DNA of 64,000 nt from Methanocella paludicola SANAE (GTDB taxonomy: Archaea > Halobacteriota > Methanocellia > Methanocellales > Methanocellaceae), in NCBI RefSeq assembly GCF_000011005.1, contig NC_013665.1, positions 1,178,001-1,242,000 of the forward strand. The letters are read 5' to 3'. The position numbers and the translations under genes are program-made. The notes beneath the pieces were generated by a model. That model made no database searches and was not told where the DNA came from. It saw only the letters and a list, made by a program, of their open reading frames with translations. How positions within the stretch are numbered: position 1 is the first letter of the stretch; each line of letters starts with the position of its first letter. This document shows positions 1 to 7,855 of this stretch, piece by piece.

Positions 1-769
1 TATGGAGGCCATCCTGCTCCTTGCATTCGAAGCCGACGCCCGGCCCCATCATTTCCGACAGGCCGTATGAGTCGTATGCCTTGATCCCGAAGGACTTTTC
101 CAGCTCTTTCCTGGTATTCACGGACCACGGCTCGGCGCCGAACAGCCCGATCTTTATAGGCAACGAGCCCGGCTCGATGCCCAGCTTCTTCGCCGTCTCC
201 GCGATGTAGAGCGCATAGGAGGGCGTAGCGTGAAATGCCGTAACTCCGAAGTCCCGGATCATCTCGATCTGTTTCTGGGTACTGCCGGTGCCACTCGGGA
301 CGACAGCGCATCCCAGCCTTTCGGCGCCGGCATGAATGCCCAGGCCCCCTGTGAATAATCCATAATTGGCCGCGTTCTGGAACACGTCGCCCGGCCTGAC
401 CCCGGCCATATAGAAGCATCTTGCCATTAACTCGGCCCAGACCTTGAGGTCGTTCTTCGTGTACCCGACGACCGTCGACTTGCCGCTGGTGCCCGACGAC
501 GCATGTAACCGGTTGATCTTGCTCCGGGGCACCGCGAAAAGCCCGAACGGGTAGTTATCCCTCAGGTCCGTCTTCTTCGTGAATGGCAGCTTTCGGACGT
601 CGTCAACGGATTTGATGTCTGAAGGCCTGACTCCCGCCTCATCGAACTTTTTCTTATAGAACGGCACATTTTTATAAACGCTGTTGGCTGACTTCTTGAG
701 CCTCTTGAGCTGCAGCTCTTCCAGCTGCTTTCTCTTCATTGTCTCGAACCTGGGCTGCCAGTATTCCAT
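1..769 (-). CDS. paaK: Phenylacetate-CoA ligase-like AMP-forming ligase (3' end beyond window)
   Basis: The first ~256 residues of an adenylate-forming ligase are visible; the C-terminus lies outside the window. Translation starts with MEYWQPRFETMKRKQLEELQ and continues with the phosphate-binding loop HASSGTSGKSTVVGYTKNDL, then a conserved GAEPWS and DSYGLSEMMGPG motif, as in PaaK-type phenylacetate/aryl-CoA ligases. Family knowledge: these enzymes activate an aryl or indolyl acetate with ATP and CoA; in methanogens they usually accompany aromatic amino-acid or indolepyruvate metabolism. The ATG at 767-769 is preceded by GAGGAAGC. A TATA-like CTTTATATGC lies about 50 bases upstream. The exact substrate cannot be read from this part. 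Confidence 0.85.
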   Translation of the reverse strand, partial: MEYWQPRFETMKRKQLEELQLKRLKKSANSVYKNVPFYKKKFDEAGVRPSDIKSVDDVRKLPFTKKTDLRDNYPFGLFAVPRSKINRLHASSGTSGKSTVVGYTKNDLKVWAELMARCFYMAGVRPGDVFQNAANYGLFTGGLGIHAGAERLGCAVVPSGTGSTQKQIEMIRDFGVTAFHATPSYALYIAETAKKLGIEPGSLPIKIGLFGAEPWSVNTRKELEKSFGIKAYDSYGLSEMMGPGVGFECKEQDGLH

Positions 770-1568
770 GTAGCTTCCTCAATTGAGATATATGCTACCA
801 TATAACATGGTTTGGGCATATAAAGGTGTCGATTGTCGTTACATGGGGCTTAAAATTATTTATTCTGGATTGTGTTGAGTAAATGGTTCAAAATATCTCA
901 TATTCTCGTTTTTCGGCATACTTCCCGCAAATTAGTTCGGTCGGTATCACTCACATTTCTTCGATCTTGTGGGCGCTGGATTGTCCGGTCGGTATCACGA
1001 ACTTCACTAAAGGAATTAAAACACGAACTGTTTTTAAGATTTTACTCACAAAAGCCCTGAGCCCCGAACTCACTGTCAATGCCCTAATGGACTAATCCAC
1101 AGGGCAGTGCTCGAAATCACTAATGCTCTAACCCGAAACGAAGGCTCTAAAACACGAACGCACGTTTGAAACGCTAAACGATAGAGCACGAACACTCAAA
1201 GGCACGGCTAAAACTCCAACGACACCAAGCTTAAGCGCTTAAACCTTATGGTTCCTACCGGGCTTTTAGAGTGTTTGTGCATGACTGTTTCGGGTTTCAA
1301 ACGTGTCTTCGAGCTTTAGAGCCTTCCTTTCGGGTTAGAGCCTTCGAGAATTCGAGCACTGCCCCGAGTATTGGAGAGTTCGAGCGTTGACGGTGTTTTA
1401 GTACCTTAGAGCTTTCGTGAGTAAAATCTTAAAGAAAAATTCGTGGCTTATTTCCTTTGGTGAGGTTCGAGATACCGACCGAACTAATCAGCACACACGG
1501 GGCATAAGAAATGTGAGTGATATCGACAGAACAGTTCAGCTCTATATGAAATAACGCATAAAATAAAA
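770..1568. other. Long intergenic region holding palindromic element copy 1
   Basis: About 800 bases without a credible gene. The first 170 bases are the AT-rich promoter region of the upstream ligase. The rest is taken up by the long imperfect palindrome described separately. Short open frames here have no coding character and lie inside the repeat. Confidence 0.7.
935..1532. repeat. Long imperfect palindrome, copy 1 (nested arms)
   Basis: The inner palindrome runs 983-1484. The reverse complement of its right arm aligns along its whole ~250-base length with the left arm, at roughly three quarters identity by eye; for example GGTCGGTATC..CGAAC pairs with GTTCG.GATACCGACC, and AAGATTTTACTCAC occurs on both arms. 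The centre is the AAGCGCTT-type sequence near 1232. An outer pair of arms, 935-961 and 1506-1532, matches at 25 of 27 bases and carries the same GTTCGGTCGGTATCAC terminal box, so one element appears nested in another. The arms are built of degenerate CTCTAA/CTCGAA/CACTAA/CACGAA units. No gene or transposase lies inside. A second copy is at 7276-7780. Confidence 0.85.
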
Positions 1569-7247: not shown

Positions 7248-7855
7248 TGTTATAAATTCAACATCTAAACGATGGTTTGTTCGGTCGGTATCACGAACCT
7301 CTCCAAAGGAATTAAACCACGAATTTTTCTTTTTAGATTTTTCTCACGAAGTCTCTAAGCCTCGAACTCACCGTCAACGCACGAACTCTCTAATACACAG
7401 GGCAGTGCTCTAAGTCTCTAACGCGCTAACCCGAAACGAAGGCTCTAAGTCTCTAAATCACGTTTGAAGCGCTAAACGACATAGCACTGACACTCTAAAA
7501 GCCCGGTCGTTCCCCAGTACTTTGGGGTGTTAGTGGCGTTGGCGATTTAGCCGAGCCTTAGAGAGTTTGTGCAGGCTCGTTTAGCGTTTCGAACGTGCAT
7601 TCGAGTTTTCGAGCCTTCTTTTCGGGTTTGAGGCTCAGGGCGTTCGTGCAATGCCCAGAGTATTAGAGAGTTCGGGCATTGACGGTGTTCTAGAGTCTCA
7701 GGGATTTAGTGAGTAAAAATTATAAAAGAAAATTAGTGGTTTATTTCCTTTGGTGATGTTCGAGATACCGACCAAACAAATCAACGCCCTATGGAAGTAC
7801 GAAAAAATTTCAAGCGAGTGTCGTAAAATAGAGATTCGCACAAATCGCTTCTCAA
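7248..7855. other. Intergenic region holding palindromic element copy 2
   Basis: About 600 bases with no credible gene between two convergent transcription units. Most of it is the palindrome at 7276-7780. The remaining 75 bases on the right are AT-rich, with nothing recognisable. Confidence 0.7.
7276..7780. repeat. Long imperfect palindrome, copy 2
   Basis: The ends TTTGTTCGGTCGGTATC and GATACCGACCAAACAAA are inverted matches, and the arms match through to a central CCCCAGTACTTTGGGG hairpin near 7518. Sequence and order of blocks agree with copy 1: CCAAAGGAATTAAACCACGAA, CACAGGGCAGTGCTCTAA, CTAACCCGAAACGAAGGCTC and CACGTTTGAA. CTCTAA is favoured here where copy 1 often has CACGAA. This copy lacks the nested outer arms of copy 1. 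Confidence 0.85.

What the first reader, a model, noticed from the sequence alone, without database searches (positions are those of the whole stretch)
983..1484. A ~500-bp imperfect palindrome that could fold as one giant hairpin
The reverse complement of the right half aligns with the left half over ~250 bases, not just at the ends. There is no transposase or gene inside, and the arms are too long for an ordinary MITE terminal repeat. It could be a non-autonomous mobile element, a DNA cruciform, or a long double-stranded RNA if transcribed.
Basis: partly seen in the sequence, partly recalled or inferred. Interest (0 to 1): 0.75.

Follow-up and report, generated by a model that had tools for sequence, protein, structure and literature searches.

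The report
Giant hairpin elements linked to nuclease
The 600-base imperfect palindrome is one of at least 39 scattered copies in a rice-field methanogen, and it appears to be the gene-less form of a little-studied mobile DNA hairpin whose fuller relatives carry a small DNA-cutting-enzyme gene in the hairpin's loop.

Summary
The palindrome is real and longer than reported: window 935-1532 aligns with its own reverse complement at 74% over 608 columns. A second copy lies at 7270-7786. The 2,957,635-bp genome matches Methanocella paludicola in size and holds at least 39 dispersed intergenic copies: 34 intact, 5 split near the axis by IS256-family elements. Those elements have their own duplicated target sites, so they inserted into the palindrome and it is not their terminal repeat.

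The key link is to GxxExxY (PF13366, a PD-(D/E)XK nuclease family). A profile of our arms hits both arms flanking GxxExxY genes in a sister genus, and that genome's gene-less palindromes. In our genome all six GxxExxY genes lie between complementary arms; one belongs to a second palindrome family of about 28 copies. Two gene-bearing units are 98.6% identical at unrelated places. In another phylum, such arms flank 25 of 29 GxxExxY genes (distant control 0 of 26).

Best reading: a gene-less, MITE-like member of a mobile class with a nuclease gene in the hairpin loop. Trans-mobilisation by the nuclease is inferred, not shown. Arms show no within-copy covariation; what is conserved is a repeated C-n-C-n-A-A word.

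The parts
935..1532 (.). Whole imperfect palindrome, family 1 copy, gene-less; axis near 1234
   Evidence: Self-alignment to reverse complement, 73.7% over 608 columns, E 1e-105; folds as one hairpin
983..1200 (+). Left arm of the core, from the inner end motif to near the apex; carries C-n-C-n-A-A words
1201..1265 (.). Apex region, about 65 nt and weakly paired; the region where IS256-family elements sit in 5 sister copies and where GxxExxY genes sit in gene-bearing relatives
1266..1484 (-). Right arm of the core
984..1002 (+). Inner end motif TTYGGTCGGTAWCWCGAAC (1 mismatch)
   Evidence: 0.09 matches expected by chance in the window
1465..1483 (-). Inner end motif, inverted copy (0 mismatches)
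936..954 (+). Outer, second copy of the end motif (2 mismatches), within an extra outer module found in only a few copies
1502..1507 (-). GCATAA, matching the TTATGC terminus seen at the ends of families 1 and 3
   Evidence: Read from sequence
7270..7786 (.). Second family-1 palindrome in the window; end motifs at 7280-7298 (+) and 7758-7776 (-)
2..769 (-). Flanking gene to the left (partial), AMP-binding enzyme PF00501
1569..3419 (-). Flanking gene to the right, 616 aa, no Pfam match

Best explanation
The palindrome is a gene-less, non-autonomous copy of a mobile element class whose complete form is a long imperfect hairpin with a GxxExxY gene (TIGR04256/PF13366, PD-(D/E)XK nuclease family) in its loop. 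Shown: many dispersed copies; gene-bearing relatives with homologous arms in a sister genus; gene-bearing and gene-less members of one family side by side; gene-bearing units that sit as near-identical blocks at unrelated places. Inferred: the arms, as arrays of C-n-C-n-A-A words in inverted order, are what the nuclease (or a partner) recognises, probably when the hairpin is extruded during replication or recombination. The nuclease would cut at or near the hairpin, and host repair or replication would copy the hairpin into a new intergenic site. Gene-less hairpins would be carried along in trans. No consistent target-site duplication was found, which fits a repair- or replication-based route better than a classical DDE transposase.
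For: At least 39 dispersed copies in the own genome. A profile of family-1 arms hits both arms of the gene-less 540-580-bp palindromes of sister genus G001 and both arms flanking GxxExxY genes there (L178, L181, L182; E 1e-14 to 1e-19; no shuffled hits). In L182 the gene-less and gene-bearing palindromes share arms at 81-87%. All six GxxExxY genes of the own genome lie between complementary arms. Family 2 has about 28 copies, exactly one with GxxExxY in the loop. The 644-bp blocks L105 and L106 are 98.6% identical with unrelated flanks, and the match begins at the arm end; L102, L103 and L104 are 90-96% identical over about 765-790 bp. Complementary arms flank GxxExxY in 31 of 43 loci (far control 3 loci), including the 6 from this genome. 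In a separate set from the phylum of G203 (Chloroflexi) it is 25 of 29 against far control 0 of 26. Catalytic residues D76, E86-x-K88 and Q100 are invariant and Y104 nearly so. Word positions C1, C3, A5 and A6 are nearly invariant (diversity 0.00-0.04 against 0.25 elsewhere, p 9e-12).
Against: No GxxExxY gene lies inside any family-1 copy in this genome, so trans-mobilisation by a nuclease from another family would be needed, or the partner is lost. No nuclease activity or movement has been demonstrated. Copies are about 20% diverged, so the burst is old. No consistent target-site duplication, and the outermost ends come in two types that I could not explain. About a quarter of GxxExxY loci in the mixed set lack clear arms, and those of one archaeal family (f6) have weak or none. 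GxxExxY could be a passenger.
Confidence: 0.6

Rival explanations
1. GxxExxY is a passenger: hairpin apexes are hot spots for insertion, and both IS256-family elements and GxxExxY genes landed there. The palindromes spread by some other, unidentified enzyme.
For: Six of eight IS256-family elements in the genome sit in palindromes (p about 3e-11, or 2e-6 if only intergenic DNA is available), and the five in family 1 lie within 45 nt of the axis. GxxExxY genes are likewise in loops. No movement has been demonstrated.
Against: The same gene family is found between such arms in several phyla, whereas the IS elements differ in kind and carry their own target duplications. GxxExxY has no ends or transposase of its own to insert itself. 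Gene and arms occur as one block at unrelated sites.
Confidence: 0.25
2. The arms are the long terminal repeats of an IS256-family (Mutator-like) transposon, and the palindrome is its internally deleted MITE or foldback derivative.
For: Five copies have an IS256-family transposase gene between the arms.
Against: Each IS is bounded by its own short inverted repeats and an 8-9-bp direct repeat inside the palindrome (CGATTGCA, GAGCCCGG, CGCATTTT, CACTAACA, CGGGCTCTT). IS copies 99.8-100% identical sit between different arms, and one (L086) in a different palindrome family. Two IS copies (L081, L082) have no such arms.
Confidence: 0.02
3. The palindrome is a functional host element: a bidirectional terminator, a dsRNA source, or a chromosome-organising cruciform, kept by selection for pairing.
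For: 18 of 39 copies lie between convergent genes and 5 between divergent genes; folding is very stable.
Against: No within-copy covariation at any class of site. No Rfam family reaches its threshold. Only the sister genus among 60 relatives has matches. Preference for gene 3' ends is also expected of tolerated insertions.
Confidence: 0.08

Closest known systems
[quoted passage not shown]
   Same: Short, non-coding, multicopy, intergenic, inverted-repeat structure, probably mobilised in trans by a fuller relative
   Different: Arms of about 250 nt rather than 4-30-bp terminal repeats (review PMC10969869); no IS partner; no consistent target duplication; the candidate partner is a PD-(D/E)XK nuclease
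REP/REPIN palindromes with RAYT (TnpAREP) transposases
   Same: Extragenic palindromes with a single associated nuclease-type gene; targets for IS insertion at the symmetry axis (ISPsy8 in PMC1525189)
   Different: REPs are 20-40 bp and linked to tyrosine transposases; here hairpins of 300-600 bp and a PD-(D/E)XK family
Intervening sequences (IVS) of 23S rRNA with a four-helix-bundle gene in the loop (from my own knowledge)
   Same: A hairpin with a small gene in its loop; in one bacterial phylum TIGR02436 genes also lie between complementary word arms (17 of 29)
   Different: Not in rRNA; a different protein family; different word type (8-9 nt C-n-C-n-A-A rather than 7-nt words)
IS256-family elements
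   Same: Found inside 5 copies of this palindrome
   Different: They are later insertions with their own ends and target duplications, not the source of the arms
Foldback / Mutator-like elements with long inverted repeats (from my own knowledge)
   Same: Very long inverted repeats that pair along most of the element
   Different: Eukaryotic, DDE transposase, 9-bp target duplication

Membership tests
GxxExxY palindromic elements (class as defined here) | Arms homologous to arms that flank a GxxExxY gene | tested here: met
   Family-1 arm profile hits both flanks of GxxExxY in L178, L181, L182, E 1e-14 to 1e-19
GxxExxY palindromic elements (class as defined here) | GxxExxY gene in the loop of this copy | tested here: not met
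   No gene in 983-1484; gene-less copy. Hence 'gene-less member', not 'complete element'
GxxExxY palindromic elements (class as defined here) | Gene-bearing unit occurs as a block at different places | tested here: met
   L105/L106 98.6% over 644 bp with unrelated flanks, in another family of the same genome; not shown for family 1 itself
GxxExxY palindromic elements (class as defined here) | Nuclease activity on the hairpin | not testable with these tools
   Only active-site residues were checked: D76, E86, K88, Q100 invariant
MITE | Non-coding, multicopy, under about 500-600 bp | tested here: met
   At least 39 copies; about 490 bp between inner motifs, about 600 bp in all
MITE | Short terminal inverted repeats (4-30 bp) | tested here: not met
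   Inverted repeat runs along the whole element
MITE | Flanking target-site duplication | tested here: inconclusive
   Exact 8-bp direct repeat CAAATCAG read by eye in only two copies (L037, L043); others mismatched or inverted
MITE | Ends shared with an autonomous IS in the genome | tested here: not met
   The only transposases found in copies are IS256-family insertions with their own ends
IS256-derived element | Palindrome arms are the transposon's inverted repeats, with duplication outside the arms | tested here: not met
   8-9-bp direct repeats lie inside the palindrome, next to the IS
REP/RAYT | 20-40-bp palindromes | tested here: not met
   Palindrome is about 600 bp
REP/RAYT | Associated RAYT (Y1 tyrosine) transposase | not tested
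   No RAYT search was run in this genome
rRNA intervening sequence (IVS) | Four-helix-bundle (TIGR02436) gene | tested here: inconclusive
   No hit in the own genome, but the control genomes gave none either
Structured RNA kept by selection | Compensatory covariation between arms | tested here: not met
   Within-copy match 0.755 against permuted mean 0.766; 1,989 of 2,000 permutations at or above the observed value

The most novel reading that the evidence does not exclude
GxxExxY hairpins are a previously unrecognised class of mobile DNA spanning bacteria and archaea: a hairpin built from degenerate 8-9-nt words with a lone PD-(D/E)XK nuclease gene in its loop, no classical transposase and no target duplication. 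Its gene-less hairpins have expanded to dozens of giant palindromes in Methanocellaceae. The common CACGAAG/CACAGAG-type intergenic repeats of many genomes would be its footprints.
Probability: 0.45. Interest if true: 0.9.

Novelty: new variant of a known kind. Interest (0 to 1): 0.77.

Why it matters
GxxExxY is a widespread protein family for which my searches of an open-access library turned up no functional study. Showing that its gene usually sits in the loop of a word-built hairpin, and that such hairpins spread, would give the family a biological role and tie it to a common type of intergenic repeat. It would be a route to mobility that uses a lone nuclease rather than a transposase. The giant palindromes also serve as landing sites for IS256-family elements, which makes target choice by DNA structure testable.

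Tried and rejected
Rfam gave nothing above threshold (a weak MIR6440 match at E 0.057 is far below its cut-off). The IS256-MITE idea was rejected because the target duplications lie inside the palindrome. Selection for base pairing was rejected for lack of covariation. A scan of 84,980 species for the end motif gave 11 single matches with no sign of the family; the own genome may be left out of that collection. Viral contigs gave two motif matches and no GxxExxY relative; phage records gave none; plasmids gave only 8 records. PDB sequence searches found no convincing relative. An attempt to read the conserved outer flanks as a target site with an 8-bp duplication was not convincing. Ten paper searches found no description of these palindromes or of GxxExxY in hairpins (among them); subscription journals and preprints were mostly not covered. 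The genome paper (PMC3146512) has no mention of palindromes, transposons or hairpins.

Full report
OBSERVATION. The palindrome is real. Ungapped arms 1033-1200/1266-1433 and 935-1035/1432-1532 are each 77% complementary. Aligned to its own reverse complement, 935-1532 matches at 73.7% over 608 columns (E 1e-105). Both strands fold as one hairpin far below shuffled energy (z -20 and -27). The reported 983-1484 is the part between the inner end motifs. No gene lies inside.

COPIES. The window lies in a 2,957,635-bp single-contig genome, the same size as the published Methanocella paludicola chromosome (PMC3146512); the identification rests on that. The genome holds at least 39 family-1 copies: 34 intact and 5 interrupted. 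A scan for the end motif confirms the inverted pairs and adds a truncated end at 2,524,300. A second copy is in the window at 7270-7786. By a simple ORF-based reading all 39 are intergenic: 18 between convergent genes, 16 tandem, 5 divergent. Of 60 relatives, only one genome of the same family (G001) has matches.

IS256 ELEMENTS ARE LATER INSERTIONS. Five copies contain IS256-family transposase genes. Each IS has its own short inverted repeats and a duplicated 8-9-bp target inside the palindrome, 202-266 nt from the left end motif where the axis is near 247. Near-identical IS copies sit between different arms, and one in another palindrome family. Six of eight such elements in the genome are in palindromes (p about 3e-11, or 2e-6 if only an assumed 15% intergenic DNA is available). 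Insertion at the symmetry axis of palindromes is known for REPs (ISPsy8), and REP targeting extends to the IS256 family (PMC1525189).

THE LINK TO GxxExxY. All six GxxExxY genes in the genome lie between complementary arms of 86-169 nt. One belongs to a second palindrome family with about 28 copies of about 320 bp, of which exactly one carries the gene and one an IS256 element. In G001, gene-less palindromes of 540-580 bp and arms flanking three GxxExxY loci (one with an in-frame stop) are the same family, and a profile of our arms hits both sides of all of them (E 1e-10 to 1e-19). Our palindrome is therefore homologous to the arms of a gene-bearing element.

GENERALITY. In 43 GxxExxY loci from archaea and bacteria, 31 have complementary flanks above 100 shuffles against 3 for distant flanks; this set includes the six from this genome. 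In a separate set of 29 genomes from the phylum of a Chloroflexi MAG, 25 of 29 do, against 0 of 26. The bacterial arms are short (mostly about 20-60 nt) and built of words such as CCACGAAGGGCACGAAG or CCACAGAGGCACAGAG. Loci of one archaeal family (f6) have weak or no arms.

MOBILITY. Two gene-bearing units (L105 at 491 kb, L106 at 1,948 kb) are 98.6% identical over 644 bp with unrelated flanks; the match starts at the arm end and ends about 15 bp past the other arm, with no target duplication that I could see. L102, L103 and L104 form a similar set. Duplication by recombination is not excluded, but the exact arm boundaries favour movement as a unit.

THE PROTEIN. PF13366/TIGR04256. Across 13 members D76, E86, K88, Q100 and the GxxExxY residues G33, E36 and Y39 are invariant, Y104 nearly so: the pattern of RecB/Cas4-type PD-(D/E)XK nucleases (from my own knowledge; weak Cas4 match). 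Activity is untested.

ARM ANATOMY. Arms carry C-n-C-n-A-A words. In family 1 the C, C, A and A positions have diversity 0.00-0.04, the fourth base 0.40 and other sites 0.25 (p 9e-12); 15 words against 2 expected. Arms of one copy are no more complementary than arms of different copies, and slightly less, so the conserved feature is the word, not the pairing. Recognition of the words by a protein is my inference; repeated re-creation of words by a copying process is an alternative.

MECHANISM. Shown: dispersal, homology to gene-bearing elements, block occurrence, axis insertion by IS256. Inferred: the nuclease acts on the word-hairpin, host repair or replication copies it, and gene-less forms use the nuclease in trans. 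The main rival is that GxxExxY is a passenger.

NOVELTY. It works like a MITE with an autonomous partner, but fails the MITE tests on terminal-repeat length and IS partner, and the target duplication is unresolved. I call it a new variant of a known kind, with a fair chance that the GxxExxY hairpins are a class of their own. The literature search covered only an open-access library.

Noticed in passing
window 7270-7786: Second copy of the same palindrome family in the window (72% over 522 columns to its own reverse complement).
   Followed up: yes
L080, L083-L087 (G000 1.49, 1.84, 0.86, 1.14, 2.35, 0.91 Mb): Six of eight IS256-family elements in the genome sit near the axis of palindromes, with 8-9-bp target duplications; an apparent structure- or site-directed target choice.
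   Followed up: yes
L119-L141, L101, L086: A second palindrome family of about 28 copies (about 320 bp) made of CACNAAG words; one copy carries GxxExxY, one an IS256 element.
   Followed up: yes
L212-L219; a partial copy in L220: A further family of about 8 gene-less 310-bp palindromes whose ends share CGGTCGGTATCACGAA with family 1 although the arms look different.
   Followed up: partly
L105 and L106: Gene-containing middle differs at 1 of 457 sites while the left arm differs at 5 of 85 plus 2 gaps: arms may change faster or be rewritten from the other arm.
   Followed up: partly
L035-L066 family-1 ends: Outermost ends come in two types (TTATGCCGTG...CTGATTTG and GGTATGC...CAAATCAG); CTGATTTG and CAAATCAG are reverse complements. 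Unexplained.
   Followed up: partly
L250-L279: Four-helix-bundle (TIGR02436) genes in the same bacterial phylum also often lie between complementary arms made of 7-nt words (17 of 29; distant control 1 of 28).
   Followed up: partly
window 935-965 and 1502-1532: This copy has an extra outer module on both sides with a further copy of the end motif 48 nt out, found in only a few other copies.
   Followed up: no
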